From Desulfotignum sp. (GTDB taxonomy: Bacteria; Desulfobacterota; Desulfobacteria; Desulfobacterales; Desulfobacteraceae), in assembly GCA_011390635.1 (NCBI GenBank), contig JAABSA010000005.1, positions 1-64,000 on the forward strand: a DNA stretch of 64,000 nt, in the 5' to 3' direction. The first letter of the stretch is position 1. Every line of letters begins with the position of its first letter. The notes under the pieces are model-generated. The model saw nothing but the letters and a program-made list of their open reading frames with translations, did not search any database and was not told the origin of the DNA. Of the stretch, positions 2,137-19,875 are shown piece by piece. The position numbers and the translations under genes are program-made.

Positions 2137-3921
2137 ATGAACGGCCATGACACCAATACCATAACCCCGGACACTACCTTGAACCCGCCGGAAAAAAATT
2201 CATACCGGTATCTTTTCCGGCGGTTCACCCTGCTCACCGTTGTCTGCTCCATTGTGCCCCTCCTGCTGGTGGGGTGGGGCCTGAATATCCATTATTCCTA
2301 TTTTGCCGAAACCCGCATTGTCAAATCTTTCAAGGAACAGGTCGCCAATCACGGGCGGTTCATCGAACAGTTTCTCCGGGAACAGAGCACCAAACTCCGT
2401 CTGGTGGCCTATACCCACTCAAAGAAAGACCTGCAGCAATCCGGCAACCTCATGAACATATTTGAAAACATGAACCGGGAGCAACCCTACATCATGGATC
2501 TGGGGGTCATCGATCAACACGGCAATCACCTGGCCTATATCGGCCCCTATGACCTGCTGGATAAGGTCTATAAAGATGAAAAATGGTTCAAAGAGGTGAT
2601 GCAGAAAGGGCTTTACATCAGTGACATGTTCATGGGTTTCCGCCAGGAACCGCATTTCATCATTGCCGTACTCCGCCGGGAAGGGGATGAAAAATGGATT
2701 CTGCGGGCCACGATCAATACCCAGGTGTTCCGTGCCCTGGTGGAAAATATGCGCATCGGTGAAACCGGCGAGGTCTACCTGGTCAACACCCAGGGGCTTT
2801 ATCAGACTACCCCCCGGTTTGGCGGATCGATCATGGACCGGGCTGACATGGCTGTTGACCCATTTAAGGACCTGGTAACTGTTGATGTTTACAAAAAAAA
2901 CGAACCCGGCCGATTTTCCGGTCAGGTGGTGGGCAAGTTCTGGCTGACCCACCCGGAATGGATGCTGGTGGTCAAGCAGGCCGGTTCTGAAACCTTTGAG
3001 GAGATGGATCATGCCCGGTTTGTCAATCTCCTTTTTCTGCACCTGAGCGCTCTAAGCATTCTGGTGGCCGCCATCTTCATCACCCGCCATATGGTGGGGA
3101 TCATCCGGAAACGGGATGAACATGCGGCCCGGTTGAACAACCAGCTGATGCAGGCCAGCAAACTGGCCTCCATCGGGGAGCTGTCCGCTGGTGTGGCCCA
3201 TGAAATCAACAATCCGGTGGCTATTATCATGACCGAACGTCAGCTGCTTATAGACCAGTATCAGCAGACAATGATAGAAGATCCGGCATTCAAAGAGCAG
3301 TTTCTTTCTTCCATGGATCAGATTGCCTTGCAGTCCCAGCGGTGCAAACGCATCACCCACAATCTGCTGCGGTTTTCCAGGCGGACCCGGTCCATGATCG
3401 AATCCGTCGATCTGAACCGGTTCGTTACCGAGGTGGTAGATCTGATGGAGCGGGAGACCAAAACCAGCGGGATCAGACTGCTGGCTGAACTGGATCCCAA
3501 CCTGCCCGCCATTCAGTCCGACCCCTCCCAGCTGCAGCAGGTATTTTTGAATCTGATCACCAACGCCGTGGATGCCCACGAAGGCAAGCCCTACGGATCC
3601 ATCCGGATCAGTACCCGGTACGACAATGACACCGAAGGTATTTTTCTTTCCATTGCCGATACCGGTACCGGTATTGACCCGAAGCATCTGGACCGCATCT
3701 TTGATCCGTTCTTCACCACCAAGCCGGTGGGAAAAGGCACGGGCTTAGGACTTTCCATCTGCTACAGTATCATCCGACAACTAAAAGGCAACATCACCGT
3801 GAAAAGTGAACCAGGGGAAGGCACTGAATTTATGATCTTCCTGCCCCTGACCCTGTCGGAAAAAGAGAACAGGGGATCCGGTCCATCCGGCCCTGATAAC
3901 ACATCAGAACCATCACTGTAA
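2137..3921 (+). CDS. Sensor histidine kinase with periplasmic Cache-type domain
   Basis: Membrane-bound sensor kinase of 594 residues that would phosphorylate the receiver encoded next to it. The order is a cytoplasmic N-terminus, a first membrane helix at about residues 30-50, a periplasmic Cache-type sensor containing [16 protein letters not shown], a second helix at about 292-318, a short coiled linker without an obvious HAMP domain, a HisKA dimerisation domain with phospho-acceptor His355 in GVAHEINNP, and a HATPase domain ([28 protein letters not shown]). I chose the ATG at 2137 over an upstream GTG at 2104 because AGGA sits 8 bases before it. The sensor is paralogous to those of the two other long kinases in this window. 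Cache kinases next to DASS-type transporters usually sense carboxylates, but the ligand here is unknown. Confidence 0.92.
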
Positions 3922-3951
3922 CCGGATGAGACCATCCGGAAGGAGGCTGTT

Positions 3952-4419
3952 ATGAAAGGAAGCAAAATCTTACTGGTAGACGATGAAATGGTTTTCACCA
4001 CCAATATGTCCAGACTGCTGGCCAACCGGGGGTATCAGGTTACCGCTGTAAACAGCGGGGATGCGGCGGTCCAGGAGCTGGAAAAGGATGATTTTGACGT
4101 GTTGGTGCTTGACCTGAAGATGCCGGGCATGGACGGCATTGCCACACTCAAGGAGATCAAGAAACTGGATCTATTCACCCAGACACTTATTCTGACGGGG
4201 CACGGTTCCATTGACAGCGCACTGGATGCGGTCCGTCTGGGGGCGTATGACTACCTGACCAAACCCTGCGAGATCGATGACCTGGTGAGCAAAATCGAGT
4301 GCGCCTGGCAGAAAAAAGAGGAACATGTCAAAGAAGAAATGCAGGAAAATGTTCAGAAAATTATCGAATCCCCCCATTCGGTATTCGACCTGTATCCATC
4401 CAAGACCAAGAAAAAATGA
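3952..4419 (+). CDS. Single-domain response regulator
   Basis: A 155-residue CheY-like receiver with no output domain. It has the acidic pair in LLVDDE, the phospho-acceptor Asp in VLDLKMPGMDG, the switch Thr in LTGHGS and the conserved Lys in LTKPCE. About 30 further residues at the C-terminus are charged and lysine-rich. It follows the Cache kinase by 30 bases with a strong AAGGAGG ribosome site, so it is the likely cognate partner. Without a DNA-binding domain it must act by protein contact or as a phosphate relay. Confidence 0.93.
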   Translation: MKGSKILLVDDEMVFTTNMSRLLANRGYQVTAVNSGDAAVQELEKDDFDVLVLDLKMPGMDGIATLKEIKKLDLFTQTLILTGHGSIDSALDAVRLGAYDYLTKPCEIDDLVSKIECAWQKKEEHVKEEMQENVQKIIESPHSVFDLYPSKTKKK

Positions 4420-4433
4420 CCCGCTATCATGGC

Positions 4434-4481
4434 AAAAAAATCCGGAGCGCAGGAGAAAATTCCCTGCGCTCCGGATTTTTT
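4434..4481. terminator. Bidirectional rho-independent terminator
   Basis: A near-perfect stem (ATCCGGAGCGCAGG pairing with CCTGCGCTCCGGAT, loop of about 7 bases) is flanked by an A-run on the left and a T-run on the right. It lies between two convergent genes and can end transcripts from both sides. Confidence 0.92.
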
Positions 4482-4513
4482 CTGATAAAACCTTTGACCG
4501 TCGAACGGCTGGT

Positions 4514-5416
4514 TCAGCTTTTCAGTATTTTTTCCATTTCAAAAAACAGATCCTGCTCCCGGATGATACCCACAATTTTTCCCGCCAATGTCACCAGCAG
4601 ACGCCGCTCGTTTTCATGGAGCATGCGGTAGGCAGCCTCCATAAGATTGGCATTGCCGTCGATGAAGGCGGGCAAGGGAGACATGGCCTCGGTGATCTGT
4701 TTCTTTTTTATCTCCTTGACCCCCTGGGTGAACATCCCGGTCCAGAACATGGGGGAATACTCGATACTGTCGGCCAGAAAAGGTTTGGGCGCCGACAGAT
4801 ACTGCGGCATCAGCATCTCCAGCAGGTCCCGGATAGTCAGGATTCCTTTGATCTGATCATGACGGTCCACGATGAGAATGGACCGGTGCCCGGTTTCCAT
4901 CAAATGATCCGTGGCCATTTTGGTCTCAAAAGATGCTTTTAGCTCGAAAATCGCATCCTGGATGGTTTTGGTTTCAGAGATCTTGGTATACTCGGTGACG
5001 GGAATCATTACCGCCGTCACCCGCCGTTCCTTGTGGGCCGGCAGTTTGTCGTTCAGGCTATAGGCCTCCTTTATTTTGGAGGACAACAGCCCGATGTCAC
5101 AGGGTTTGTTCAGGTAATCGAACGCCCCTTCCACCAGGGCTTCTCTAGCCGATGGTCTGGCTCCGTGGCCGGTGAGCATGATCACCGGCAGATCCGGTTT
5201 GCTCTTCTTGATCCGGCTCAATGTTTCATGCCCGTCCATTCCCGGCATTTTGATATCCAGGATCACCACATCCGGGTTTAGTTTGATTTTTTCCAGGGCC
5301 TGTTCTCCATTTTCCGCCAGAATGACGTCAAATCCCTTTTTCTCCAGAATTTTGCGGGTGGTTTCCCTGAACCGTTTTTCATCATCCACCATCAATACTT
5401 TTATCTGATCGGTCAT
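4514..5416 (-). CDS. Response regulator: receiver fused to a CBS-domain pair
   Basis: A 300-residue protein. Residues 1-120 are a complete receiver (VLMVDDE, phospho-acceptor in VILDIKMPGMDG, LTGHGA, LNKPCD). Residues about 130-298 hold two CBS motifs: the first around TAVMIPVTEYTKISE with SILIVDRHDQIKGILTIRDLL, the second around ITEAMSPLPAFID with RLLVTLAGKIVGIIREQDLF. CBS pairs bind adenine nucleotides in other proteins, so this regulator could combine phosphorylation with energy state; that is inference. It is the last gene of the leftward operon that runs from the uspA gene at 10792 through kinase, receiver and DASS transporter, unless an internal break exists. No DNA-binding domain is present. 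Confidence 0.9.
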   Translation of the reverse strand: MTDQIKVLMVDDEKRFRETTRKILEKKGFDVILAENGEQALEKIKLNPDVVILDIKMPGMDGHETLSRIKKSKPDLPVIMLTGHGARPSAREALVEGAFDYLNKPCDIGLLSSKIKEAYSLNDKLPAHKERRVTAVMIPVTEYTKISETKTIQDAIFELKASFETKMATDHLMETGHRSILIVDRHDQIKGILTIRDLLEMLMPQYLSAPKPFLADSIEYSPMFWTGMFTQGVKEIKKKQITEAMSPLPAFIDGNANLMEAAYRMLHENERRLLVTLAGKIVGIIREQDLFFEMEKILKS

Positions 5417-5439: not shown

Positions 5440-5967
5440 TTAATTTTTAACGAATGCCAGATGCGCTGAATACACCAAAAAAAACAGCACAATTATGGAA
5501 ATTGCCACAATCAGGATGGATTTTTTCCACGACAGGTTGCATGTATGTTTCAGGCCGGTGCATATGAGCCACCATTTCCACGGTTCGGTAATCCAGACCA
5601 GAAACGGCAGCCAGGACAAAAAAAGCGTCACCCCGGATGAAAACGCGTAAATGCTGAACACAACGGCAAAGGGTGCTTTTTTCCCGACGATCATCACCAT
5701 GGCCAAATATCCCAGGGTGGTTGAGATCAGGATCATGCCGGCCGCGTTCAAAAAAAAGATGGGCGCCATGATCCGGACCGGCTGTGAATACGCCCCGGTC
5801 AACAAACTTGCCAGGGCATAGAACAGGCAGCAGATCACCATGAATTCCACTGCCCGGCGGGGCCTGGTTTTTTCCACAAGCTCCCTGAAAAACAGGCCCG
5901 GTTCGATCAGCAGCTGGATCAGTGCATAGGCATGAAACCGGCCGGCTTGTAATGCAGCGGTGACCAT
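5440..5967 (-). CDS. Yip1-family-like integral membrane protein
   Basis: A protein of about 175 residues with roughly five hydrophobic segments and an amphipathic N-terminus (IQLLIEPGLFFREL). The layout of a short cytoplasmic head followed by a helix bundle resembles Yip1/YIPF-domain proteins (PF04893), whose bacterial function is unknown. I chose the ATG at 5967 because GGGGAGG lies 8 bases upstream; an earlier ATG has no such site. It sits between the DASS transporter/small protein and the receiver-CBS gene, so it may be an accessory membrane subunit of the transport system. Family placement is by overall look rather than by a diagnostic motif. Confidence 0.7.
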   Translation of the reverse strand: MVTAALQAGRFHAYALIQLLIEPGLFFRELVEKTRPRRAVEFMVICCLFYALASLLTGAYSQPVRIMAPIFFLNAAGMILISTTLGYLAMVMIVGKKAPFAVVFSIYAFSSGVTLFLSWLPFLVWITEPWKWWLICTGLKHTCNLSWKKSILIVAISIIVLFFLVYSAHLAFVKN

Positions 5968-6025
5968 CACAGCGCCCTCCCCTTCATTGTGATCCAAAAA
6001 TCCATGAACACATGCGCCACCTTTC

Positions 6026-6211: not shown

Positions 6212-8059
6212 TCAGAATCCGGGCAGGGTGCCGAATCCCCGGAAGCTCCAGTAAATGCCGGTAAAAAGCAGCAGCAGCACGTTGGCGATAAAAAACATGG
6301 GAATGCCCACCCGCAGGTAATCCTTGGGCTCCAGGTATCCGCTGGCATACACAATGGCATTGGGCGGGGTGCCGATAATCAGGCAGTAGGCAAACGAGGA
6401 AGCCACTGCAGTGGACATGGCCATGAACGGCAGATAGGTGGATCCCGGATGCACCATGCCTGCCATGTTGAGGGCGATGGGGCCCACGGACGCGGCTGCC
6501 GGGCCGTCTGCCATCAGGTTGGTGATCACTGATGTCATGCCGTTGCTGACCATCAGCAGGGGCAGGCCCGATTCCATGCCGAACTGGGCCAGAAAATCGA
6601 TCACCGACCGGGCCAGCCAATAGGCGGCTCCGGTACTGTCCAGGGTCCGGCCGAAGATGATGGCACCGGCATACAGCCAGATAACCCCCCAGTCCACTTT
6701 TTCCTGGTAATCCCGCCAGTTGACCACCCCGGAGATAATATAGGCCATGGCACCGGCCACGGCGATCACCCCGATGCCCAGCCGAAAGGGAAAAATTCCC
6801 ATCTGGTAGAACGATTTTTCCGTAAACCACCCGAACACCATGATGACAAAAATGATCAACGCCCAGATCTGCTGTTTGTTCCACCCCCCCATTTTATCGA
6901 TTTCAGATCTCAGATGGTCCATGGCCGGGGCCAGAGAAACGATTTTCGGCCGGAACCGCAGGTTGGTGAGGAACCAGGTAATGGGAATCATCACGATGAC
7001 AATGGGAAAGCAGTAGGTCACCCATTGAAAAAAACCGATATCGATGCCGAACATGTCCGACAGATAGGTCATCATGATCACGTTTCTGGCCCCGCCGGAA
7101 GGGGCACCGGGCCCGCCGATGTTACAGGCCATGGCAATGGTGATCATAAGCAGCTTGGCCAGTTCCTTGTCCTCGGGCACCTCGTCGGTGAGGCTGTTCT
7201 GATACAGCAACATACCGATGGGCAGGAACATGGCGGCCAGGGCATGGTCGGAAATGAAAGCGGCCAGCGGTGCGATGATCACAAAGAAAATCAGCGTGAT
7301 CCACTTGGTGTTGGGCACGGCCAGTTTTTTGAACATGGCCAGGCACACCCGTTTGTCCACCCCGGTTTTGACAAAGGCGGCGGCAAACATCAGGCTGCCC
7401 ATGATAAACCAGCAGGCATCGCTCCAGTACAGCATGGTCACGGCCTCCCGGGAGAGCACCCCGGTGAACACATACATCAGGCCGATGCAGAATGCCACGG
7501 CAGGCAAGGGGATACACTCGGTCAGAAAACACAACACCACAAACGCTCCCACGGCAACGGCCACCTGGATATGCCAGCCCCCTTTGTCTGCGGCTGCCTT
7601 GTCTTTTCCGGTCAGTTCCTCATATTTCAATCCCTGTTTTCTCAAGTCCAGTGCCCCGGTCATGACCGACTGGAACCGGTCCTCATCCACATCATCCTTG
7701 ATATAATTATAAGCAAGGTCAAAATTTTTCTGGTCTGCATCGATCTTGTTCGTTTTACACCATTTCAGGTCCCTTGCCAGATACCGGGCTTTTTTCAACG
7801 CCCCCATCTGCATGTTGGTTTCCATGACCCGGGCGGCGAGCAGCTGCCACTGGGCCGCATCCACACTGTCCACATCAAACAGTTCTTTGGTGATATGGTT
7901 CACAACCGCCTTGGGCCCCACCTGGTACTGGGTACCCACATCCTTCATGCCCCTGGGGGTGGGGATGAGCAGCAGGACCGCCATTGCCAGGACCGGAAAG
8001 ATAAACACCTTCCAGTTGATATATTTGTCATACCCCGTGACTTTTTTTTCTTTTTTCAT
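6212..8059 (-). CDS. DASS/SLC13-family anion:Na+ symporter with long soluble insertion
   Basis: A 615-residue secondary transporter of the divalent anion:Na+ symporter family, expected to import di- or tricarboxylates (or sulfate) with sodium. After a first helix (KVFIFPVLAMAVLLLIPT) comes an unusual soluble segment of about 130 residues rich in Lys and Asp, then the normal helix bundle starting at WHIQVAVAVGAFVVL. The two half-site motifs are visible as FISDHALAAMFLPIG and VITNLMADGPAAA, followed by the late IIGTPPNAIVY motif. I chose the ATG at 8059 because GGAGGGG precedes it closely. It lies downstream of a kinase and receiver in the same operon, which suggests it carries or co-senses the ligand of that kinase. 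Substrate not determinable from sequence. Confidence 0.9.
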   Translation of the reverse strand: MKKEKKVTGYDKYINWKVFIFPVLAMAVLLLIPTPRGMKDVGTQYQVGPKAVVNHITKELFDVDSVDAAQWQLLAARVMETNMQMGALKKARYLARDLKWCKTNKIDADQKNFDLAYNYIKDDVDEDRFQSVMTGALDLRKQGLKYEELTGKDKAAADKGGWHIQVAVAVGAFVVLCFLTECIPLPAVAFCIGLMYVFTGVLSREAVTMLYWSDACWFIMGSLMFAAAFVKTGVDKRVCLAMFKKLAVPNTKWITLIFFVIIAPLAAFISDHALAAMFLPIGMLLYQNSLTDEVPEDKELAKLLMITIAMACNIGGPGAPSGGARNVIMMTYLSDMFGIDIGFFQWVTYCFPIVIVMIPITWFLTNLRFRPKIVSLAPAMDHLRSEIDKMGGWNKQQIWALIIFVIMVFGWFTEKSFYQMGIFPFRLGIGVIAVAGAMAYIISGVVNWRDYQEKVDWGVIWLYAGAIIFGRTLDSTGAAYWLARSVIDFLAQFGMESGLPLLMVSNGMTSVITNLMADGPAAASVGPIALNMAGMVHPGSTYLPFMAMSTAVASSFAYCLIIGTPPNAIVYASGYLEPKDYLRVGIPMFFIANVLLLLFTGIYWSFRGFGTLPGF

Positions 8060-8101
8060 GTAACCCCCCTCCATAGCTTCAGTTTGAGATTCCGATCATT
8101 T

Positions 8102-8536
8102 TTATTTTTCAAGGTGTACGTCCGTCTCAGTGCCGGATGTCAGCCCCCTGATTTTATCCTCGAGCCGCTGTCTTTTTTCAAATGCCTCATATGCCTTGGT
8201 CACGATGACATCGATATCCGCCGGTTTCATCACGTAGTCAAACGCCCCGAATTGAAGGCCCTCGACGGCGGAATCCATGGTTGCATGACCGGTGAGAAAA
8301 ATCACCTCCACCGGCGGATACAGGGTCTTGATGGCCCGCAGGGTTTTAAATCCGTCCATACCCGGCATCTTGATATCCAGAATCACCACATGGACATCAT
8401 GGGTTTTAAGCAGTTCCAGGGCCTGGACACCGCTTTGGGCCGTGACGACATCGATCCCTTTTTTTTCCATCAGTTTGGCGGTGGTCAGAAGATACCTTTC
8501 CTCATCATCCACCAGCATCACTTTCAATTTTTCCAA
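8102..8536 (-). CDS. Single-domain response regulator
   Basis: A 144-residue CheY-like receiver: VMLVDDE, phospho-acceptor in VVILDIKMPGMDG, switch Thr in FLTGHAT, Lys in VMKPAD. About 20 residues of charged helix follow. No output domain. It is encoded between its likely kinase (8582-10309) and the DASS transporter in one operon, with CTTTTGG-type ribosome-site complement ahead of the start (AAAGGAGAG on the coding strand). Confidence 0.92.
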   Translation of the reverse strand: MEKLKVMLVDDEERYLLTTAKLMEKKGIDVVTAQSGVQALELLKTHDVHVVILDIKMPGMDGFKTLRAIKTLYPPVEVIFLTGHATMDSAVEGLQFGAFDYVMKPADIDVIVTKAYEAFEKRQRLEDKIRGLTSGTETDVHLEK

Positions 8537-8581: not shown

Positions 8582-10309
8582 TCATTGATCCCGTTTCTCT
8601 GTTTCCGCCCCGGGCAGGGTGATGATAAAGGTGGTACCTTCATTCACCCGGCTGGTCACATCCATGGTGCCCCCGAAATTCTCGATAATGCCGTAACACA
8701 CGGACAACCCTAAACCGGTGCCTTTTCCCACCGGCTTTGTGGTGAAAAACGGAGAAAATACTTTTTCAATATGTTCCGGCTGGATACCGGCACCGTTGTC
8801 AGTAACACGGATCTCAACCCACTTTTCATCCTTCAATTGTGCCTGGATATCCAGCCGCCCCCCGGCATCCGGATGCTGTTCCATGATCGCGTCAATGGCA
8901 TTGTTGAACAGATTGAGCATCACCTGCTGAAACTGGGAGGCATCCCCCATGAATCCGGGCAGATGCTCAGGGATGTGGTGAAACAGGGCAATACCTTCCA
9001 CACTGGCTTTTTGTTCGATCATCTTGAGAATCTCGGGAATCTCCTCGGCGGGATGCAGCAGCTGCACACGGGTTTCATTTTTCCGTCCGAATTTCAATAT
9101 GGCCCGGGTAATATCTGAACATCTTGATACCTGCAGTTCAATCTGGGAAAGGGAATCCTGCAGTTCCAGGATCTCTTCAACCTCCCGGTCTATCTTTTTA
9201 TTTTCAAACAGATCCTCAAAAATGGAGGCCATCAGGGCATGTTCACTTTTGATGATCTGCAGCGGATTGTTGATCTCATGGGCAAACCCGGCCGCCATTT
9301 CGCCTACCTCCGCCAGCTGGGTGGCCCGGATCAGCTGATTGCCGAGGTCTTTTTTATCTCTCCCCAGCTGTTCCATGCGTGTGAACAGTTTTTCCGTCAT
9401 GAAAAAAGACATGCTGACGATAATGGCAATACCCAGCACCATGATCACCAGGCTGGCATACAGGGCATAATAAAAAAACCGGAACGCATCCTTTTTTTCC
9501 TGCCTCACCACCAAAAGCCATTCCTGGTCTTTGAGCCAGATGGTGGCATACAGATATTTGAGCCCCTGGGGATCTGATTTGAGAAAGGTGTGAATGGTGC
9601 TGTCTGACGATGGAAACGCTGAAAATTCCGGATCTTCCGCCATAACATTGACAACGCCGGACCGCCGTCCGGTTTGGGCGATGCCGTTTTTGTTCAGGAT
9701 ATAGGCTTCTCCGGAAGTGCCGATTCTCACACTGGAAACCAGCCTGTCGAAATACAGGGTGTCAATGGTGGCCCGGAGAATCCAGGCATTTTCCCCTTCC
9801 CCTTTTTTCACGGCAATGATGAAATGGGGCACATTCCGATATCCCAAAAACACATCACTGATATACCGGCCTTTTTCCATGACCTCCCGAAACCAGAGTT
9901 CATCTTTGTACAATTTTCCGGTCAACTGGTACTGGCCGGAGTACTTTACATGAAGTCCCCGGGAATCAAACAATCCCAGATCTATAAACGCTCCGGATTT
10001 GATTTTCAGGATCTCAAACATGTCGTCTATGACCTGGTTGCGGCTGATAGATTCAAAATCAAACAGGTTGGTCACCAGTTCAAGGTCTGATTTGCGCTCC
10101 AGAAGAAAGGATTCGATCATGTCCCGGTGGTCCCCCACAATGCGTTTCAGGCTTTGGGTGGAGCTGTTTTCCAGGGCCGTGGTAAAATAGTAGAAACTGA
10201 TGCCCACGGCCAGGAAAAGCGGGATCAGGGGAATGACAATCATATTGGTCAGGATGTTGCGCTTGACCCGTCTGGCCCGGGTATTTTCCGTCACGTTTTT
10301 TTTGTCCAT
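8582..10309 (-). CDS. Sensor histidine kinase with periplasmic Cache-type domain
   Basis: A 575-residue sensor kinase, paralogue of the one at 2137. It has a basic N-terminus, membrane helix at about residues 20-45, periplasmic Cache-type domain containing YISDVFLGYRNVPHFI, second helix at about 280-305, then HisKA with phospho-acceptor His344 in GFAHEINNP and HATPase with NAIDAI, DNGAGI and [16 protein letters not shown]. No HAMP domain is evident. Its start codon abuts the stop codon of the uspA gene (TAAATG), so translation is coupled. The partner is probably the receiver at 8102-8536 in the same operon. Confidence 0.92.
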   Translation of the reverse strand: MDKKNVTENTRARRVKRNILTNMIVIPLIPLFLAVGISFYYFTTALENSSTQSLKRIVGDHRDMIESFLLERKSDLELVTNLFDFESISRNQVIDDMFEILKIKSGAFIDLGLFDSRGLHVKYSGQYQLTGKLYKDELWFREVMEKGRYISDVFLGYRNVPHFIIAVKKGEGENAWILRATIDTLYFDRLVSSVRIGTSGEAYILNKNGIAQTGRRSGVVNVMAEDPEFSAFPSSDSTIHTFLKSDPQGLKYLYATIWLKDQEWLLVVRQEKKDAFRFFYYALYASLVIMVLGIAIIVSMSFFMTEKLFTRMEQLGRDKKDLGNQLIRATQLAEVGEMAAGFAHEINNPLQIIKSEHALMASIFEDLFENKKIDREVEEILELQDSLSQIELQVSRCSDITRAILKFGRKNETRVQLLHPAEEIPEILKMIEQKASVEGIALFHHIPEHLPGFMGDASQFQQVMLNLFNNAIDAIMEQHPDAGGRLDIQAQLKDEKWVEIRVTDNGAGIQPEHIEKVFSPFFTTKPVGKGTGLGLSVCYGIIENFGGTMDVTSRVNEGTTFIITLPGAETEKRDQ

Positions 10310-10792: not shown

Positions 10793-10862
10793 TTTGCTGC
10801 TCCTTTCTGTTTTTTTTTCAGAAACATGTTCCTTCAAAAGAGCTCCTGGTAATGAGCGGATC

Positions 10863-11245: not shown

Positions 11246-11839
11246 ATGAAAACCACATTGGTAAAAGAGATAATGGTTCCTCTGGCAGATTATGCCACAG
11301 TGGATGAAAACGCCACCATGGCGGAAGCGGTTCTGGCACTGGAGCGGGCCCGGGACCGATTTGACAAAGAAAAACTCAAACATCGGGCCATCCTTGTCAC
11401 CAACAGCCGGAACCAGGTGGTGGGGCGGATCAGCTACCTTGATTTTCTCCAGGGACTTGAGCCCAAATACAATGAAATCGAAGAGCTGTACAATACCATC
11501 AACCGGAAACTGGAATCCAGGTATCACCTGGCAGCTGATTATTCCCCGGACCGGTTTCAGGCACAGATTCGAAAGTACAATCTGTGGGAAAAACCCCTGA
11601 ACAACCTGTGCGGCAAGGCGGCCGCCTGTCATGCCAAAGACTTCATGCACACTCCCGCGGAATCGGATTACATAAAGGAAGATGCCACCCTGGACCAGGC
11701 CATTCACCAGTTCGTGCTGGTCCGAACCCAGTCTCTGCTGGTGAAAAACACCCGGGACATCACCGGTATCCTGCGGCTCAGCGATGTGGTGGAGGCCATA
11801 TTCAGCATGATAAAACAATGCCCGGTCCAAGATCGGTAG
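11246..11839 (+). CDS. CBS-domain pair protein
   Basis: A 197-residue soluble protein made of two CBS motifs with a longer middle segment. The first covers residues 1-75 (VKEIMVPLADYATVDENAT with VVGRISYLDFL), the second about 130-190 (KDFMHTPAESDYIKEDAT with ITGILRLSDVV). Such Bateman modules bind AMP/ATP-type ligands and regulate partner proteins. A GGAGG ribosome site precedes the ATG. It opens the rightward operon CBS-receiver-DASS-DASS, parallel to the receiver-CBS fusion in the leftward operon, so the same two modules occur fused on one side and separate on the other. Confidence 0.88.
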   Translation: MKTTLVKEIMVPLADYATVDENATMAEAVLALERARDRFDKEKLKHRAILVTNSRNQVVGRISYLDFLQGLEPKYNEIEELYNTINRKLESRYHLAADYSPDRFQAQIRKYNLWEKPLNNLCGKAAACHAKDFMHTPAESDYIKEDATLDQAIHQFVLVRTQSLLVKNTRDITGILRLSDVVEAIFSMIKQCPVQDR

Positions 11840-11937
11840 AAAACAATCAAAAATCTATTCATCCGGTCATTCAGGCGTGAATGGGGGCGGATGATCAACA
11901 ACAGAATGGATGCTGTCATACATCAAAGGAGATCAAA

Positions 11938-12369
11938 ATGGTAACCATGGTTAAAATGCGGCTCATGCTGGTGGATGATGAAGAGCGGTTTCTTCAGACC
12001 ACCGGTAAAATGATCCGCAGGAAAGGTTATGATGTGAGCACTGCGGTCAGCGGTGAAGAATGTCTTGAAAAACTGGAACAGGAACTGGTGCATGTGGTGA
12101 TCCTGGATGTAAAAATGCCGGGCATGGACGGGGTGGAAACCCTGAAAAAGATCAAGCAGCGTCACCCCAGAATCGAGGTGATCATGCTCACCGGCCATGC
12201 CACGGCGGACTCAGCCGTGGAAGGATTGAAATCCGGGGCCACGGACTATCTTCAGAAGCCCACCAGTGTGGAAGACCTGGTTGCAAAAGCGGAACAGGCC
12301 TTTGCCCGGCACCTGGACATTGAAGAAAAAATCCGACTGGCCGAAGCGTTCAAGCAATCCAGTATTTGA
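11938..12369 (+). CDS. Single-domain response regulator
   Basis: A 143-residue receiver: LMLVDDEERF, phospho-acceptor in VVILDVKMPGMDG, MLTGHAT, LQKPTS. The ATG at 11938 is supported by AAAGGAG seven bases upstream; an in-frame extension further upstream is not. No output domain. It is close in sequence to the receivers at 8102 and 17543. It is placed directly before the first of two DASS transporter genes, as the receiver at 8102 is placed before the DASS gene on the other strand. Confidence 0.92.
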   Translation: MVTMVKMRLMLVDDEERFLQTTGKMIRRKGYDVSTAVSGEECLEKLEQELVHVVILDVKMPGMDGVETLKKIKQRHPRIEVIMLTGHATADSAVEGLKSGATDYLQKPTSVEDLVAKAEQAFARHLDIEEKIRLAEAFKQSSI

Positions 12370-12452: not shown

Positions 12453-13859
12453 ATGGCTGAAGTTGAATCTCTTAAAGAACCGGCAAGTACCAAGTCGATC
12501 ATCATAAAGTTTTGTATTTCCCTGGCCCTGGGCATTCTGGTCATCCTGCTGCCCCGGCCAGAAACCCTGACCCCGGAAGGCCACCGGCTTCTGGCCCTGT
12601 TGACCACCATTGTTTTTCTGTGGGTGAGCGAGGCGGTCCCCATCGGCGCAACAGCGCTTCTGGCCGGGGCCGGCCTGATTTTTCTGAACATCCAGCCGGC
12701 CCAGGCTGCCTGGGCACCCTTTGCCAGCCCAGCCGTCATGTTCGTGCTCATGATCATCATGTTCGGGGTGGTGCTCAACGAAGTGGGGCTGGCCAACCGC
12801 ATCATGTTCTATCTGCTCAAGTTTGCCGGCACCAAAGTCAAGCGGTTGAGCCTGTTTCTGGCTATCGGATGCACCATTACCTCGTCGGTGTTCCATGACG
12901 CCACCATCACGGTCATCATGGTCTTTGCCTTTGTGCCGGTGTTCATGAGCATGGGCATGAAACCGGGTCAGGGACACCGGCTGCCGCTGTTTTTCATGCT
13001 GCTGATCCCCCTGGCATCATCTGCCGGCGGGTTCGGCACCCTGCTGGGCGGCGGGCGAAACCCTCTGGCACTGGAAATTCTGAGCACTTTCAGCGGCGGC
13101 ACCATTTCCGTGGGGTTTCTGGAATATATCTTCATCATGCTGCCCATCTGTATACTGACAGCCGTAGCCACCTGGGCCGTATTATGGGTGCTGCTCCGGC
13201 CCAAAGAAAAAGAACTGACCGGGGTGGAGCTGGCTGACCCGGGTCCCATGAAAACGGCGGAGATCGGCGTACTGATCATTTTCATCATCACTTTTGTACT
13301 CTGGTTCATGGGGGACCTGACCGGGTGGCACTACAGTGTACCGGCCGCCTTTGCCATTCTGGGGTTCTGCGGACCCGGATGGATAACCTTCAGGACCATC
13401 TGTGACAAATTTCCCTGGGAATCCTGGATCGTTTTCGGTGCCGGGGTCTCTTTGGGGGTAGCCATGCTGGAAAGCGGGGCCGGACGATACCTGGCCGGGG
13501 TATGCCTGCCGCTTCTGGACGGCAAACCGGAATTTGTGGTGTATTACGGGATGAGCTTTTTTGGCTCTTTTCTGTCCAGCCTGATGTCCAACTCGGCCGC
13601 CGTGGCCCTGATGCTGCCCATCACCCTGCCCATGGCGGAGCTGATGGAAATGTCACCAAAATCCGTGGCCATGATGGCACCCATGACCACCTCGTTCATC
13701 ATGCTGGTCATTGGATGCCCGCCCACCATCATCGCATACAGCACCGGGTACTTTTCCCAGGTGGATTTCATGAAAATCGCCATCCCCTGGTGTCTCATAC
13801 TCCTGGTGGTCTGTGTAATCAGCATGCTGGTGTACTGGCCCTTGATCGGATTTATTTAA
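12453..13859 (+). CDS. DASS/SLC13-family anion:Na+ symporter, copy 1
   Basis: A 468-residue sodium-coupled anion transporter with 11-12 predicted helices. It has early SEAVPIGATALL, a first half-site around TSSVFHDATITVIM, the glycine-rich SSAGGFGTLLGGGRNP, and a second half-site around SLMSNSAAVALMLP, followed by IGCPPTIIAYSTGYF. These are typical of the family that carries succinate, malate, citrate, tartrate or sulfate. It lacks the long soluble insertion of the DASS protein at 6212. The next gene, 19 bases on, encodes a nearly identical protein. Substrate unknown. Confidence 0.92.
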   Translation: MAEVESLKEPASTKSIIIKFCISLALGILVILLPRPETLTPEGHRLLALLTTIVFLWVSEAVPIGATALLAGAGLIFLNIQPAQAAWAPFASPAVMFVLMIIMFGVVLNEVGLANRIMFYLLKFAGTKVKRLSLFLAIGCTITSSVFHDATITVIMVFAFVPVFMSMGMKPGQGHRLPLFFMLLIPLASSAGGFGTLLGGGRNPLALEILSTFSGGTISVGFLEYIFIMLPICILTAVATWAVLWVLLRPKEKELTGVELADPGPMKTAEIGVLIIFIITFVLWFMGDLTGWHYSVPAAFAILGFCGPGWITFRTICDKFPWESWIVFGAGVSLGVAMLESGAGRYLAGVCLPLLDGKPEFVVYYGMSFFGSFLSSLMSNSAAVALMLPITLPMAELMEMSPKSVAMMAPMTTSFIMLVIGCPPTIIAYSTGYFSQVDFMKIAIPWCLILLVVCVISMLVYWPLIGFI

Positions 13860-13878: not shown

Positions 13879-15285
13879 ATGGCTGACATTGCAAGTGTAA
13901 AGGAGCCGGTAACCACCCGGTCCATCCTTATTAAAGTTACCATTGCGCTGGTCCTGGGGATTGCGGTCATGCTGCTGCCCCGGCCGGAAAATTTGACCCC
14001 GGAAGGCCAGCGCCTTCTGGGGCTGCTGGCGGTGGTGGTATTTTTGTGGGTCAGTGAGGCCGTGCCCATCGGTGCCACCGCCCTTTTATCCGGGGCCGGC
14101 TTGATTTTTCTCAACATCCAGCCGGCCCAGGCTGCCTGGGCACCATTTGCCAGTCCGGCGGTCATGTTCGTGCTCATGATCATTATGTTCGGAGTGGTGC
14201 TCAATGAAGTGGGGCTGGCCAACCGCATCATGTACAACCTGCTCAAATTCGCAGGCACACGGATCAAGCGATTGAGCCTGATTCTGGCCATCGGCTGCAC
14301 CATGACCTCCACCGTTTTCCATGATGCCACCATCACGGTGATCATGGTGTTTGCCTTTGTGCCGGTGTTCATGAGCATGGGCATGCAGCCGGGACAGGGA
14401 CACCGGCTGCCGATGTTTTTCATGCTCCTGATTCCTTTGGCCTCTTCGGCCGGCGGTTTCGGCACCCTGCTGGGCGGCGGGCGGAACCCACTGGCTTTGG
14501 AAATCCTGAGCAAATTCAGTGAAGGCACCCTTTCCATCGGGTTTTTACAGTACATCATCATCCAGTTCCCCATCTGCATTCTGACGGCCGTGGCCACCTG
14601 GGCCATTCTCTGGGTCCTGATACGACCGAAGGAAACAGAACTGGAAGGAGTGGAGCTAACAAAGCCGGGTCCCATGAAAACAGCGGAAACCGGTGTGCTG
14701 GTAGTGTTTGTGGCCACCTTTATCCTCTGGTTCATGGGGGATCTTACCGGATGGCACTACAGCGTGCCGGCGGCTTTTGCCATCCTGGGTTTCTGCGGCC
14801 CGGGGTGGGTATCGTTCAGAACCATCTGCGACAAGTTTCCCTGGGAATCCTGGATCGTTTTCGGCGCCGGGGTCTCTTTGGGGGTGGCCATGCTGGACAG
14901 CGGTGCCGGCCGGTTCCTGGCAGAGGTGTGTCTGCCCCTTCTGGAAGGCAAACCCATGGCTGTGGTGTATTACGGCATGGGATTTTTCGGCTCATTTCTG
15001 TCGAGCATGATGTCCAACTCAGCTGCCGTGGCGTTGATGCTGCCCATCACCCTGCCCATGGCGGAACTGATGGAGATGTCACCCCAGTCCGTTGCCATGA
15101 TAGCACCCATGACCACCTCGTTCATCATGCTGGTCATTGGATGCCCGCCCACCATTATTGCTTACAGCACCGGTTATTTTTCTCAAAAAGACTTTATCAA
15201 GGTGGCGGTGCCCTGGTGTCTGATCCTGCTGGTGGTATGCGTAGCAAGCATGCTGGTGTATTGGCCCCTCATAGGGTTTGTATGA
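13879..15285 (+). CDS. DASS/SLC13-family anion:Na+ symporter, copy 2
   Basis: Same length (468 residues) and, by eye, close to nine in ten residues identical to copy 1, with all motifs kept (FHDATITVIM, LLGGGRNP, MSNSAAVALMLP, GCPPTIIAYSTGYF). Differences cluster at the N-terminus and in the loop around ILSKFSEGTLSIGFLQ, in the middle of the protein. Third positions have drifted, so the duplication is not brand new, but the proteins stay under selection. The copies could form a heterodimer, since family members work as dimers, or carry different substrates. Confidence 0.92.
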   Translation: MADIASVKEPVTTRSILIKVTIALVLGIAVMLLPRPENLTPEGQRLLGLLAVVVFLWVSEAVPIGATALLSGAGLIFLNIQPAQAAWAPFASPAVMFVLMIIMFGVVLNEVGLANRIMYNLLKFAGTRIKRLSLILAIGCTMTSTVFHDATITVIMVFAFVPVFMSMGMQPGQGHRLPMFFMLLIPLASSAGGFGTLLGGGRNPLALEILSKFSEGTLSIGFLQYIIIQFPICILTAVATWAILWVLIRPKETELEGVELTKPGPMKTAETGVLVVFVATFILWFMGDLTGWHYSVPAAFAILGFCGPGWVSFRTICDKFPWESWIVFGAGVSLGVAMLDSGAGRFLAEVCLPLLEGKPMAVVYYGMGFFGSFLSSMMSNSAAVALMLPITLPMAELMEMSPQSVAMIAPMTTSFIMLVIGCPPTIIAYSTGYFSQKDFIKVAVPWCLILLVVCVASMLVYWPLIGFV

Positions 15286-15866: not shown

Positions 15867-17027
15867 TTGAATAATCTTGATATGGCAGAACACATAAACC
15901 TATTGCTGGTTGATGATGAAAACGACTTTCGTCAGATTCTTGCCAAGCGCCTGACCCGCAGGGGGATGTACGTCCGGGAAGCGGACCGGGGGGAAAAAGC
16001 GCTTCAAATGATGGAGGAGCAGCCGGTTGATATTGTCATACTGGACATCAAGATGCCGGGTCTGGATGGCATTGAGTGCCTGCAGCGCATCAAAGCAAAC
16101 CATGACATGACAGAAGTGATCATGCTCACCGGTCATGCGGATGTACATGGCGGTGTGACGGGCATAAAATCCGGTGCCTTTGACTATCTTACCAAACCGG
16201 TGGAACTGGAGCATCTGATCCGTAAGATCAAACAGGCCCATCACAAAATCCAGCGGATACTGGCGGAAAAAGAGGAGGCCGCATTCAAGGAACGGATCCA
16301 GCAGCAGATGGTGGTTGCGGAGCGGCTGGTAGCCCTGGGCACCATGGCAAGCGGTGTGGCCCATGAAATCAACAATCCTTTGGCGGTTATCCAGGATTCC
16401 GCCGGCTGGCTGCATCAGATTCTGGAAAAACCGGAAATGCAGAACATGCCCCGAATAGATGATTTTAAAAAAGGGCTGAACCGTATCAACACAGCCGTCA
16501 AACGTGCCGGTAAAATCACCCAGCAGCTTCTCCAGGCTGTCAAAACCCAGACCACGGAAATGGTTGACCCTTCCACCTTTGTGGAAGTCAGCCTTAAAAA
16601 ATTAACAGATGAAGCCATCACCCTGGTCGAACCGGAAGCATCCTTGAAAAATATTGGAATCACCCTGGAAAGCTGCGAACCTCATCCTATTGCCTGGACA
16701 GATCCCCTGCAGTTACTACAGGTCCTGCTCAACCTGCTGTCCAATGCGATCCAGGCAACAGATGCCGGGGGCCGGGTCACTATGATTTTGGCCGCTTCTT
16801 TGGAAGAGGCCAAAATCATAGTGAAAGACACCGGTTGCGGTATCTCCAAGGAGAATATTTCCCGGATTTTTGAGCCTTTTTTCACCACCAAAGAGGCGGA
16901 TCAGGGCACCGGCATGGGGCTTTATGTTTCCTGGGGCATCATCACCGGTCTTGGGGGATTGATTTCAGTGGAAAGTGAAATTGACAAGGGAACAACCTTC
17001 ACCATCACCCTGCCGGTTAAAAAATAA
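15867..17027 (+). CDS. Hybrid protein: N-terminal receiver followed by histidine kinase
   Basis: A soluble 386-residue protein. Residues 1-125 are a receiver (LLLVDDE, phospho-acceptor in VILDIKMPGLDG, MLTGHAD, LTKPVE). A short coiled coil follows, then HisKA with His166 in GVAHEINNP and HATPase with NAIQAT, DTGCGI, FFTTKEADQGTGMGLY. There is no membrane segment. The receiver may gate the kinase, making it a phosphorelay node between membrane kinases and the free receivers. Start choice is uncertain: TTG at 15867 or ATG at 15882; neither has a strong ribosome site, and translation may be coupled to the preceding gene. Confidence 0.88.
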   Translation: MNNLDMAEHINLLLVDDENDFRQILAKRLTRRGMYVREADRGEKALQMMEEQPVDIVILDIKMPGLDGIECLQRIKANHDMTEVIMLTGHADVHGGVTGIKSGAFDYLTKPVELEHLIRKIKQAHHKIQRILAEKEEAAFKERIQQQMVVAERLVALGTMASGVAHEINNPLAVIQDSAGWLHQILEKPEMQNMPRIDDFKKGLNRINTAVKRAGKITQQLLQAVKTQTTEMVDPSTFVEVSLKKLTDEAITLVEPEASLKNIGITLESCEPHPIAWTDPLQLLQVLLNLLSNAIQATDAGGRVTMILAASLEEAKIIVKDTGCGISKENISRIFEPFFTTKEADQGTGMGLYVSWGIITGLGGLISVESEIDKGTTFTITLPVKK

Positions 17028-17042: not shown

Positions 17043-17474
17043 ATGACAGAAGCCCAAAAACAGCAAGCACCCAGGGACATTTCAAATCCCGGAAAATCAG
17101 ACCGGATACGGCTGCTGCTGGTGGATGACGAAGTAGCCTATGCAGATGTGCTGTCCAACCGGCTTGGCAAACGGGGGTTTGATGTTCAAAAAGCCTACTC
17201 CAGCCCTGAGGCACTTCTGGCTTTGCGCACACAGAAATTTGATGTGGCGGTCCTGGACCTGAAAATGCCGGATATGGATGGCATCGAAGTATTAAAGATC
17301 GCCAAACAGGAGGACCCTGATCTGCAGGTCATCATGCTTACCGGTCATGGCTCGGCCACTGCCTGTGAACAGGGACTGGCCCTTGGGGCGTTTGATTATC
17401 TGATGAAACCTTGTGAACTGGATACGCTGGTTGAAAAAATCCATGAAGCGTTCCAAAAAAAATCCGAGGACTGA
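17043..17474 (+). CDS. Single-domain response regulator
   Basis: A 143-residue receiver with a 20-residue polar N-terminal lead. Motifs: LLLVDDE, phospho-acceptor in VAVLDLKMPDMDG, MLTGHGS, LMKPCE. It follows the hybrid kinase by 15 bases and is its probable phospho-acceptor. No output domain. It is the last rightward gene of the signalling island and meets a leftward receiver gene head-on; I saw no terminator hairpin in the 68-base gap. Confidence 0.92.
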   Translation: MTEAQKQQAPRDISNPGKSDRIRLLLVDDEVAYADVLSNRLGKRGFDVQKAYSSPEALLALRTQKFDVAVLDLKMPDMDGIEVLKIAKQEDPDLQVIMLTGHGSATACEQGLALGAFDYLMKPCELDTLVEKIHEAFQKKSED

Positions 17475-17542
17475 ACGGAGCCGGCTTCTTAAATTTCACA
17501 TGCCTCCATCAGATCACACAACTGGTTACATACAATTGAAAA

Positions 17543-17974
17543 TCATCTGCCCCGGGTGGTTATCTTACGCATCTGGGCTTCAATGATTTTTTCTTCGTGG
17601 CGGCGCTTTTTGGCAGCCGCTTCCGTCACTTTCTCCACCAGAAGATCAATGTCACTGGGTTTCATCAGATAGTCAAATGCGCCCAGTTTCATGCCTTCAA
17701 TAGCCGATTCGACCGTTGCATGGCCGGTAAGCATAATAACCTCCACCAGGGGGTACTGTTTTTTGATCTCCTTGAGGGTCTCGATCCCATCCATGCCCGG
17801 CATCTTGACATCCAGGACCACCACCTCCACGCGTTTGTTTTCCCTTAGCTTTTCAAGGGATTCATCACCGCTGTATGCCGGCAGAACATCCATGTTTCTT
17901 TTGGTGAGCCGCTTGATCATGGTGTCCACAAACGGGGCTTCATCATCCACGAGTAAAATTTTTGCAATAGACAC
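17543..17974 (-). CDS. Single-domain response regulator
   Basis: A 143-residue receiver: ILLVDDEAPF, phospho-acceptor in VVVLDVKMPGMDG, MLTGHAT, LMKPSD, with a basic C-terminal helix. It lies 14 bases after the kinase at 17989-19875 in a two-gene leftward operon and is that kinase's likely partner. No output domain. Confidence 0.92.
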   Translation of the reverse strand: MSIAKILLVDDEAPFVDTMIKRLTKRNMDVLPAYSGDESLEKLRENKRVEVVVLDVKMPGMDGIETLKEIKKQYPLVEVIMLTGHATVESAIEGMKLGAFDYLMKPSDIDLLVEKVTEAAAKKRRHEEKIIEAQMRKITTRGR

Positions 17975-17988
17975 TTTGTATATTCTCC

Positions 17989-19875
17989 TTAGCTTTTGGG
18001 TGCTGATGTATCCAACGGCAGCACTATGGTAAATGTGGTTCCTTCATCCACCCTGCTTGCCACATCGATCCGGCCGCCCATTTTATTGATGATACCATAA
18101 CAGATGGAAAGACCAAGTCCGGTCCCTTTACCCACCGGTCTGGTGGTGAAAAACGGGTCGAAAATGCGTGCCAGATTGTCTTCAGGTATGCCGGGTCCGG
18201 TATCGTTGATGGATATGGAAATCGTTTCGTCATCCGCCCGGGTGATGATGGTAATTTTCCCCCCGGTTTTTTCCATGGCATATACCGCATTCTGCAGAAT
18301 GTTCATGAGCACCTGCTGAATCTCCGTGGCAGATGCCTGGATGGTGGGTAAGTCCGGAGCCATCTGCACATCCACATCGATATTGGCGTATTTGAATTTC
18401 TGGGACAGCAGATCCACCACTTCGGTAACAAACTCGTTCAGCTGCAGGGTTTCCACCCGGGAATCGGTTTTTCTGGCAAAGCTGAGCAGCTTGTGGGTGA
18501 TGCCTTTGCACCGGTGTCCCTGGGTCTCGATCTGATTCAATGCCCGCTTGAACTCCTCAAAATTGTCTGCTTTATCAATGCCTTCACTGAGCAGGTCCTG
18601 GATCCATCCGGCCTCTTCCACCATGATGGCAACGGGATTGTTGATTTCATGTGCGATGCCGGCGGCAAGCTCCCCTATGGATGCCAGTTTTCCGGTTTCA
18701 ACGATCTGCTGATTCATGACCTGTTTTTCAGAATCCAGCCGGGCAATGCGTTTGACCAGTTGCCCGGAAATAAAAAAAGCCATAAAAACAATGACCAGGG
18801 CACCTGACAGTGAAATAAGGATGGCGATGATCTGGGTTTCGTTGAGTTTGGCAAAGGCATCTTTGGTTTCCTGCTGAAAAATCAGCAGCCAGTCATCGTG
18901 TTTCAAAAATGCGGCAACAACCAGAAATTTTGTACCACTTTCAGCCATTTTTTCAACCGTAAAGGTCGCATATTTATGCACTGATTTATCACTATATCTG
19001 TTCTTATCAAATTCATATTCAAGGGCAATCTGGTACAGTTCATTTGCTTCGGCCATGGAATAGGTATTTTTTTTCCCGGGTATATTTCCCCGGGCACTTT
19101 CGCCCATTTTAAACAGGTTCATATACTGCTGCATGGTCAGTTTGGGGGTTCCCGTGGGGGGTCTTGTCTGGAATTCACCCTGGCGGTTCAAAATAAAGGC
19201 GGTACCTGTTTTGCCCATGGTGAAATCTTCCACCAGGGTATTGAAGGCAAGAAAATCGATAGTCGCACGCACCAGGTATTCACGCCCCTCCCATTGCCGT
19301 TTGACCGCCACAATAAAATGAGGATGCCCCCGCATGCCTGAGAACACATCACTGATGTAAGCCTCTGTGGCCCTGGCCTTTTGAAACCATTCAGAGCTGC
19401 TGTAATCCGCTCTGTCAAGGTCAAATGGACCGGCATAGGACACCTGCTGTCCGTTTTCATCAATCACTCCCAGATCAACAAAAACATAGCTGTAATCCGC
19501 CTGGAGTGCCCGCAGCCGCTGCTGGAGAAATGTTTTGTTCTGCAGCTGTGAAAAATCATGACTTCTTGCCAGATGACTGATATCACTGAGTTTTTGTTTA
19601 AGAAAATCATCAAGCTTCTGCCGGTGTTTCAGCACCAGTTCATCTAAATGGGCATGCACCATGTGATTGGAAAACACATGAAACTGATACAGAATAATAC
19701 CGGTTACCAGAATCATGGGAGCCAGGGAAACGATCACAATACGCAGTGCAATTTTCATTCTGAAGTCTGCATAGTATGCCGGCCCTGTATGTTTTATGGC
19801 TTGTTTATCAGTCACCTGTAATTTCCTGTTCCAGGGATACATATCCCCATATCGCTCAGATATTTTCAATATCAC
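17989..19875 (-). CDS. Sensor histidine kinase with periplasmic Cache-type domain
   Basis: A sensor kinase of about 628 residues, third member of the paralogous set. A first helix ([21 protein letters not shown]) is followed by a periplasmic Cache-type domain with [16 protein letters not shown], longer than in its paralogues because of a lysine-rich stretch around residues 260-290. A second helix ([21 protein letters not shown]), HisKA with His409 in GIAHEINNP and HATPase ([28 protein letters not shown]) follow. The start is unsure: GTG at 19875, ATG at 19842 or ATG at 19758 are possible and none has a good ribosome site. Confidence 0.9.

What the first reader, a model, noticed from the sequence alone, without database searches (positions are those of the whole stretch)
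2137..19875. Dense phosphorelay with six output-less receivers wrapped around three DASS transporters
In 18 kb there are three paralogous Cache kinases, one receiver-kinase hybrid, six single-domain receivers, one receiver-CBS fusion, one CBS protein, one UspA and three DASS-type transporters. None of the receivers has a DNA-binding domain. Seen directly: motifs and gene order. Inferred: the signal may end on transporters or CBS modules by protein contact, or be relayed to the NtrC-type protein at 22037. The repeated unit kinase-receiver-transporter, with CBS modules fused or free, looks like a transport-control system that I do not know as described.
Basis: partly seen in the sequence, partly recalled or inferred. 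Interest (0 to 1): 0.75.

Follow-up and report, generated by a model that had tools for sequence, protein, structure and literature searches.

The report
Phospho-receivers wired directly to anion transporters
In this sulfate-reducing bacterium, sensor kinases and small switch proteins without a DNA-binding part are encoded around anion (probably sulfate) transporters, and in relatives switches of this kind are fused to the transporter itself, which suggests that the cell controls the transporter's activity directly rather than only its gene.

Summary
Pfam confirms three Cache kinases, one receiver-kinase, six single-domain receivers, one receiver-CBS, one CBS, one UspA and three DASS transporters; a Yip1 membrane protein was missed. 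The neighbourhood is conserved: of 79 loci found through receiver-CBS, 45 have 3 kb on both sides, and all 45 have a DASS gene within 4 kb on the same strand. The key new evidence is fusion: receivers fused N-terminally to DASS in at least 13 of 146 genomes of the order, and C-terminally to SulP-STAS permeases in the three genomes of one genus examined. Window receiver 15411-15848 groups with the SulP-fused ones (bootstrap 100). Best reading: kinase, receiver, transporter, by protein contact; CBS modules add an intracellular input. Sulfate is likely but unproven: 14 of 14 genomes with DASS1 carry dsrA, against 163 of 345. A related cluster was published in 2025 (PMC11887813) with WalR-type transcriptional regulators; receivers here and in Desulfosarcina widdelii show no DNA-binding domain. 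Cluster known; direct wiring to transporters not found in my ten paper searches. No biochemistry was seen.

The parts
2137..3921 (+). Cache histidine kinase HK1
   Evidence: Pfam dCache_1, HisKA, HATPase_c
3952..4419 (+). single-domain receiver REC1, 155 aa
   Evidence: Pfam Response_reg the only match over its cut-off; D,D,D,T,K intact
4514..5416 (-). receiver-CBS fusion, last gene of the DASS1 operon
   Evidence: Pfam Response_reg + CBS, two stretches; near-full-length relatives at E <= 2e-75 in 51 of 146 genomes of the order, own included; DASS within 4 kb in 45 of 45 judgeable loci
5440..5997 (-).
   Evidence: Pfam Yip1 1.1e-11; present in 37 of 45 loci
6212..8074 (-). DASS1 transporter, 620 aa, with a helical insertion (about residues 41-148) after the first helix
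   Evidence: Pfam Na_sulph_symp; model pLDDT 83; top fold matches NaS1 and VcINDY
8102..8536 (-). single-domain receiver REC2, between kinase and DASS1
   Evidence: Pfam; groups mainly with receivers upstream of DASS1 in relatives (10 of 15, support 0.80)
8582..10309 (-). Cache histidine kinase HK2
   Evidence: Pfam
10310..10867 (-). UspA protein, abuts HK2 (0 bp gap)
   Evidence: Pfam Usp; spacing
11246..11839 (+). free CBS protein
   Evidence: Pfam CBS; a relative is fused to a divergent receiver (L083)
11881..12369 (+). single-domain receiver REC3, directly upstream of DASS2
   Evidence: Pfam
12453..13859 (+). DASS2 transporter
   Evidence: Pfam
13879..15285 (+). DASS3 transporter, 85% identical to DASS2
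   Evidence: Pfam; identity
15411..15848 (+). single-domain receiver REC4, directly downstream of DASS3; groups with receivers fused to SulP permeases
   Evidence: Pfam; clade support 0.98, UFBoot 100
15867..17027 (+). receiver-histidine kinase hybrid without a sensor domain found
   Evidence: Pfam
17043..17474 (+). single-domain receiver REC5
   Evidence: Pfam; clade of 22 (support 1.0) in which 13 lie upstream of DASS2-type genes
17543..17974 (-). single-domain receiver REC6
   Evidence: Pfam
17989..19875 (-). Cache histidine kinase HK3
   Evidence: Pfam
20437..21219 (+). cytidylate-kinase-like protein, possible further member
   Evidence: Pfam Cytidylate_kin2; same domain fused to a receiver in L122 and L087
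22037..23461 (+). NtrC-type sigma-54 activator, outside the cluster, link uncertain
   Evidence: Pfam; S54 domains in 22 of 39 long relative loci

Best explanation
A transport-control phosphorelay. Cache kinases sense a periplasmic ligand (probably sulfate or a sulfate-linked signal) and phosphorylate single-domain receivers. The phosphorylated receivers dock on the cytoplasmic side of DASS transporters and change their activity, instead of binding DNA. Receiver-CBS and CBS proteins add an intracellular (energy or adenylyl-ligand) input to the same transporters. Shown here: genes, domains, intact phosphorylation residues, conserved operons, receiver-transporter fusions in relatives. Inferred: phosphotransfer, the contact itself for unfused receivers, the sign of the effect, the ligand and the substrate.
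For: (1) Pfam finds no DNA-binding domain in the eight receiver proteins; in the 79 relative loci my profiles give 141 stand-alone receivers under 200 aa (median 150) and 5 proteins of 200 aa or more with a receiver as the only labelled domain. (2) 45 of 45 judgeable receiver-CBS loci have DASS within 4 kb on the same strand, 38 a Cache kinase, 38 a solo receiver, 33 all three; two gene orders of the same five genes, in 23 and 12 of 79 loci. (3) Receiver-DASS single-frame proteins in at least 13 of 146 genomes of the order (14 ORFs; 12 families by the tool's labels), plus one cut by a contig end; Pfam-confirmed for the four that I sent; 19 of 19 checked keep D,D,D,T,K; fused DASS domains form one clade (19 sequences, support 1.0). 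The stand-alone receiver closest to the fused ones (node support 0.99) lies directly upstream of a DASS1 gene in L109. (4) SulP-STAS-receiver in the three genomes of one genus that I looked at. (5) REC4 groups with the SulP-fused receivers, UFBoot 100, and lies at the same 3' side of a transporter gene. (6) 14 of 14 DASS1 genomes have dsrA against 163 of 345 (P 2e-5). (7) PMC11887813 calls the homologous cluster's DASS transporters constitutively formed, which leaves room for control of activity.
Against: No fusion was seen in the window, nor in the own-genome stretches read (L091-L094). Fusion with DASS looks like one ancient event, not many. Outside the order it is rare: of 395 genomes drawn from the phylum only two matched over the whole fused query in one open frame, one of them from the order itself (2 candidates scored per genome, so a lower bound). 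No further SulP-receiver fusion among 297 phylum genomes (14 matches, none reaching the receiver; 3 candidates scored per genome). The node holding only the 20 fused receivers has support 0.52. Eight stand-alone receivers directly upstream of the unfused sister DASS type (530-600 aa) scatter over the tree instead of grouping with the fused ones, which a simple split-gene/fused-gene picture would not predict. By raw identity REC4 is hardly closer to the SulP-fused receiver (52%) than REC5 and REC6 are (50%). The model of the fusion is poor over the receiver, so no interface was seen. 23 sigma-54-type regulators occur in the 79 loci, and transcripts of D. autotrophicum DASS genes respond to sulfate (PMC5840216), so transcription also matters.
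Confidence: 0.62

Rival explanations
1. Transcriptional control: the kinases act through DNA-binding response regulators (the published WalR/PhoRB-like model, or the NtrC-type protein at 22037), and the single-domain receivers are only phosphate relays or sinks.
For: PMC11887813 proposes WalR-type regulators acting at promoters (section 14). S54-type activators occur in 22 of 39 loci of 15 kb or more. Sulfate-dependent transcription of DASS genes in D. autotrophicum is reported in PMC5840216, citing Tarpgaard 2017.
Against: Pfam finds no DNA-binding domain in the eight receiver proteins, nor in the five solo receivers of Desulfosarcina widdelii in L132. No sigma-54 sites in front of the operons. 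It does not explain why receivers are fused to transporters.
Confidence: 0.15
2. Direct receiver control is right, but the transported anion is an organic acid (acetate, dicarboxylate) and not sulfate.
For: Open frames that I read as acetyl-CoA hydrolase (183-1673), acetyl-CoA synthetase-GNAT (25479-28166) and CBS-ACT (23665-24387) flank the cluster (sequences; these names are my reading, not a database result). DASS is best known for dicarboxylates; the canonical SNT motifs are replaced.
Against: A receiver lineage of the same cluster is fused to SulP-STAS; all 14 DASS1 genomes carry dsrA; homologous clusters are treated as sulfate transporters in two papers, with expression that follows sulfate in D. 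autotrophicum. Homology of those exact genes to the window was not tested.
Confidence: 0.25
3. The receivers act on the kinases or on CBS/UspA proteins as feedback or branching elements; closeness to transporters reflects shared regulation of one uptake locus.
For: A receiver is fused to the N-terminus of the kinase in L228, L230, L234 and L235 (L228 by Pfam, where its Cache match is below the cut-off). Receiver-CBS fusions are frequent in the loci (84), but the loci were chosen by that protein.
Against: Fusions to two unrelated transporter families, at opposite ends of the protein.
Confidence: 0.15

Closest known systems
DASS sulfate-uptake gene cluster of Desulfosarcina variabilis 3be13 and relatives (PMC11887813; section 14, Fig. 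5 legend and passages seen)
   Same: DASS transporters with Cache sensor kinases, many two-component proteins and CBS proteins in one cluster; sulfate reducers; a second SulP cluster with two-component genes.
   Different: The paper calls the regulators WalR type acting at promoters; here and in D. widdelii they are single-domain receivers. In the passages seen, receiver-transporter fusions are not mentioned; the rest of the text and its supplements were not read.
Single-domain response regulators with protein targets, such as EpsW acting on EpsZ in Myxococcus (PMC12802240; abstract read), CheY (recalled)
   Same: Receiver without output domain; post-translational effect on a protein target.
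   Different: Target there is a glycosyl transferase (EpsZ) or the flagellar motor (CheY); here a secondary transporter, with natural fusions in relatives.
Transporter-linked sensors: DctA with DcuS and DauA (PMC5703999; start of abstract only); SLC5/STAC kinases (PMC9100948, PMC5715377; start of abstracts only)
   Same: Physical coupling between two-component proteins and transporters or transporter-like domains.
   Different: There the coupling is on the sensor kinase (input side). Here the receiver is on the transporter (output side).
DASS/SLC13 carriers of known structure: VcINDY, NaS1
   Same: Fold.
   Different: DASS1 has S-D-H and A-D-G where VcINDY has SNT and SNT, and an Arg in GGARN where VcINDY has GSPPN; helical insertion near the N-terminus.

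Membership tests
Canonical two-component system with DNA-binding regulator (WalR/PhoB type) | receiver fused to a DNA-binding output domain | tested here: not met
   Pfam finds no DNA-binding domain in the six solo receivers, the receiver-CBS or the receiver-kinase; same for five solo receivers of D. widdelii, one of them a weak receiver match of 39 bits
Single-domain response regulators | receiver alone, phosphorylation residues intact | tested here: met
   six proteins of 143-162 aa; D,D,D,T,K in all
Single-domain response regulators | phosphorylated form acts on a protein target | not testable with these tools
   needs biochemistry; fusions in relatives are indirect support
DASS/SLC13 transporters | Na_sulph_symp domain and DASS fold | tested here: met
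   Pfam for all three; Foldseek top hits NaS1, VcINDY for DASS1
DASS/SLC13 carriers with known structure | two SNT motifs at the substrate/Na+ site (role of the motif recalled) | tested here: not met
   DASS1: SDH and ADG; DASS2: DAT by alignment, and SNS
Sulfate-uptake cluster of PMC11887813 | DASS + Cache kinases + two-component proteins + CBS in one cluster | tested here: met
   D. widdelii (L132) has the same module, and D. cetonica (L123) too with its DASS frames broken into pieces
Sulfate-uptake cluster of PMC11887813 | regulators of WalR type | tested here: not met
Sulfate-uptake cluster of PMC11887813 | transports sulfate | not testable with these tools
   indirect only: dsrA in 14 of 14 DASS1 genomes

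The most novel reading that the evidence does not exclude
Sulfate reducers gate anion import at its first step by phosphorylation: two-component receivers are regulatory subunits, sometimes built-in domains, of two unrelated transporter families (DASS and SulP), so that outside sulfate sensed by Cache kinases and inside energy state sensed by CBS modules set transporter turnover within seconds, without transcription.
Probability: 0.5. Interest if true: 0.86.

Novelty: new variant of a known kind. Interest (0 to 1): 0.72.

Why it matters
Sulfate uptake costs an energy-limited sulfate reducer part of its small budget and is the first step of a globally important respiration; how it is controlled is open. 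If receivers are transporter subunits, a two-component system would have a secondary transporter as its direct output, and the receiver-DASS and SulP-receiver fusions make this testable with single proteins (change the phospho-Asp, measure uptake). It would also revise a published transcriptional reading of the cluster.

Tried and rejected
Tried without gain: sigma-54 promoter scan (not above chance); Rfam scan of 1-30000 (none); tRNA scan of the window (none); dsrA association inside the order (over the cut-off in 122 of 146 genomes, too common to discriminate), so it was repeated at phylum level; AlphaFold model of a receiver-DASS fusion (mean pLDDT 71, receiver largely under 60), so no interface was read from it. 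A larger IQ-TREE run timed out and was replaced by a 66-sequence run. I expected stand-alone receivers upstream of the unfused sister DASS type to be the split counterparts of the fused receivers; the tree does not show that. My ten paper searches listed nothing on receiver-transporter fusions; they cover the held library only, long result lists were shown in part, and supplements were not read.

Rejected readings: that the cluster is a chance crowd of signalling genes (conserved); that its receivers are degenerate (residues intact); that the SulP fusion is an assembly error (same architecture in three genomes).

Limits: domain labels in the gene-order tables come from profiles that I built from window proteins and enlarged by iteration, checked by Pfam only on selected proteins. 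Searches scored only 2-3 candidates per genome and at most 9, so their counts are lower bounds. In one search, 34 of the 79 loci were set aside (33 short flanks, 1 without a full receiver-CBS call). The 79 are the best matches of a capped scan, not a random sample. Searches report the same number of genomes under the same request; I take the draw to be the same. Relatedness was not corrected for in the dsrA test. The one script check that recounted fused-receiver residues left out the copy cut by a contig end (L234).
Full report
What is there. Two blocks stand out. On the minus strand, UspA, HK2, REC2, DASS1, Yip1 and receiver-CBS follow one another with gaps of 0, 45, 27, 214 and 23 bp. On the plus strand, CBS, REC3, DASS2, DASS3, REC4, receiver-kinase and REC5 follow with gaps of 41, 83, 19, 125, 18 and 15 bp. 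HK1-REC1 and HK3-REC6 are pairs at the two ends. All eight receiver domains have the five phosphorylation residues, and Pfam finds no DNA-binding domain in the eight proteins. The nearest named relatives by receiver-CBS are Desulfotignum MAGs (91-93% identical); the window's genome carries dsrA.

Conservation. The receiver-CBS protein has near-full-length relatives at E <= 2e-75 in 51 of 146 genomes of the order, own included. Anchoring on receiver-CBS, not on a transporter, 45 of the 79 loci had at least 3 kb on both sides: 45 of 45 have a DASS gene within 4 kb on the same strand, 38 a Cache kinase, 38 a solo receiver, 37 Yip1, 33 DASS plus Cache kinase plus receiver. The full operon occurs in two orders, kinase-receiver-DASS-Yip1-receiverCBS (23 of 79) and kinase-receiver-receiverCBS-DASS-Yip1 (12 of 79) (many loci are cut by contig ends). 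Named carriers include Desulfospira joergensenii, Desulfamplus magnetovallimortis, Desulfosarcina cetonica and widdelii, Desulfatitalea alkaliphila, two Desulfoluna species, NaphS2 and Pseudodesulfovibrio MAGs.

Fusions. In some relatives receiver and transporter are one protein. An open frame of 681-722 aa holds an N-terminal receiver, a linker and a DASS domain (Pfam on four). A search with linker plus DASS found it in at least 13 of 146 genomes of the order (14 ORFs, 12 families by the tool's labels), plus one copy cut by a contig end; others lie outside the order (G328, and Candidatus Abyssobacteria L173). In a phylum-wide draw of 395 genomes only G105 (of the order) and G328 matched over the whole fused query in one frame (lower bound). 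The fused DASS domains form one clade (19 sequences, support 1.0): one old fusion, kept. The 20 fused receivers also fall together, with support 0.52 alone and 0.99 when one stand-alone receiver is added; that receiver lies between a Cache kinase and a DASS1 gene in L109. Against a simple split/fused picture, eight stand-alone receivers upstream of the unfused sister DASS type scatter over the tree. In 19 fused loci a Cache-type kinase is directly upstream in 13 (2 more end there) and a solo receiver directly downstream in 16.

A second, unrelated transporter is fused too: SulP permease plus STAS plus C-terminal receiver, in the three genomes of one genus that I examined, but in none of 297 phylum genomes searched (3 candidates scored each). 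The window's REC4, which lies directly 3' of DASS3, belongs to the clade of these SulP-fused receivers (support 0.98; UFBoot 100 in a 66-sequence tree), and four other clade members lie directly 3' of a DASS gene (L084, L087, L088, L136). Raw identity alone would not show this (52% against 50% for REC5 and REC6). Further fusions in the same neighbourhoods are cytidylate-kinase-like plus receiver (L122, L087) and receiver plus kinase (L228).

Transporter. DASS1 has the DASS fold (model pLDDT 83; top Foldseek hits NaS1 and VcINDY). Its substrate site is unusual: where VcINDY has SNT twice, the DASS1 type has S-D-H-A (at least 89 of 92 sequences) and A-D-G (at least 87 of 92), the fused type S-E-H-A and S-D-G (18 of 19 each), and an Arg stands in G-A-R-N, A-A-R-N or G-G-R-N (at least 86 of 92; 19 of 19 fused) where VcINDY has GSPPN (which printed the four commonest forms). 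So its substrate or coupling need not match that of characterised carriers. For sulfate speak: 14 of 14 genomes with the DASS1 type have dsrA, against 163 of 345 (hypergeometric 2e-5; outside the order 8 of 8, about 0.0015; relatedness not corrected for); the link to SulP; and the literature below.

Literature. PMC11887813 (section 14, Fig. 5 legend and passages) describes a 30.5 kb DASS cluster in Desulfosarcina variabilis with related clusters in 26 species, calls its DASS transporters abundantly and constitutively formed, and proposes sulfate sensing by Cache kinases, regulators of the WalR type at promoters, and CBS proteins as a second level. PMC5840216 (passages and sections 20, 24) reports, citing Tarpgaard 2017, that DASS genes HRM2_38230 and HRM2_38300 of D. 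autotrophicum are highly expressed at low sulfate. That those exact genes are orthologues of the window's was not tested. The five solo receivers of D. widdelii in L132, same genus as D. variabilis, show only a receiver domain over the cut-off. None of my ten searches of the held library listed a receiver-DASS or SulP-receiver fusion.

Mechanism. The simplest account of all this is that receivers are regulatory subunits of the transporters: Cache kinase to receiver to transporter, with CBS modules reporting an internal state. In the fusions the receiver precedes the first membrane helix of DASS or follows the STAS domain of SulP; from the known topology of these families (recalled) both are cytoplasmic. 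Phosphotransfer, contact in the unfused case, sign of effect, ligand and substrate are inferred. A transcriptional layer through an NtrC-type protein may exist beside it (23 sigma-54-type regulators in the 79 loci); it is not supported by sigma-54 sites here.

Verdict. Observation confirmed; interpretation partly supported; cluster known since 2025, direct wiring of receivers to transporters not found in print by my searches. New variant of a known kind.

Noticed in passing
window 20437-21219; L122:18046-19272, L087:16882-18168: A cytidylate-kinase-like protein beside the cluster; in relatives the same domain is fused to a receiver, in L122 directly after a SulP gene.
   Followed up: partly
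L228, L230, L234, L235: A receiver is fused to the N-terminus of the kinase that sits upstream of the receiver-DASS fusion (L228 by Pfam, Cache match below its cut-off).
   Followed up: partly
L137, L138, L173: The receiver-CBS/DASS1 module appears in MAGs labelled Planctomycetota, Phycisphaera and Candidatus Abyssobacteria: horizontal transfer or mis-binning.
   Followed up: no
L091, L092 (own genome, contigs C23 and C32): Two further DASS clusters in the same genome: CBS + DASS + receiver, and DASS + kinase + NtrC-type + a divergent receiver-CBS.
   Followed up: partly
window 6212-8074, residues about 41-148: Confidently modelled helical insertion between the first helix and the DASS core; possibly periplasmic.
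   Followed up: no
L083:11391-12311: Relative of the free CBS protein (window 11246-11839) fused to a divergent receiver (45.8 bits) that by eye seems to lack one of the two acidic residues (sequence).
   Followed up: no
window 20135-20422: Free AMPK-type glycogen-binding (CBM48) domain protein of 95 aa just outside the cluster.
   Followed up: no
L123 (Desulfosarcina cetonica): The DASS frames of this locus are broken into pieces: real decay or sequencing errors.
   Followed up: no
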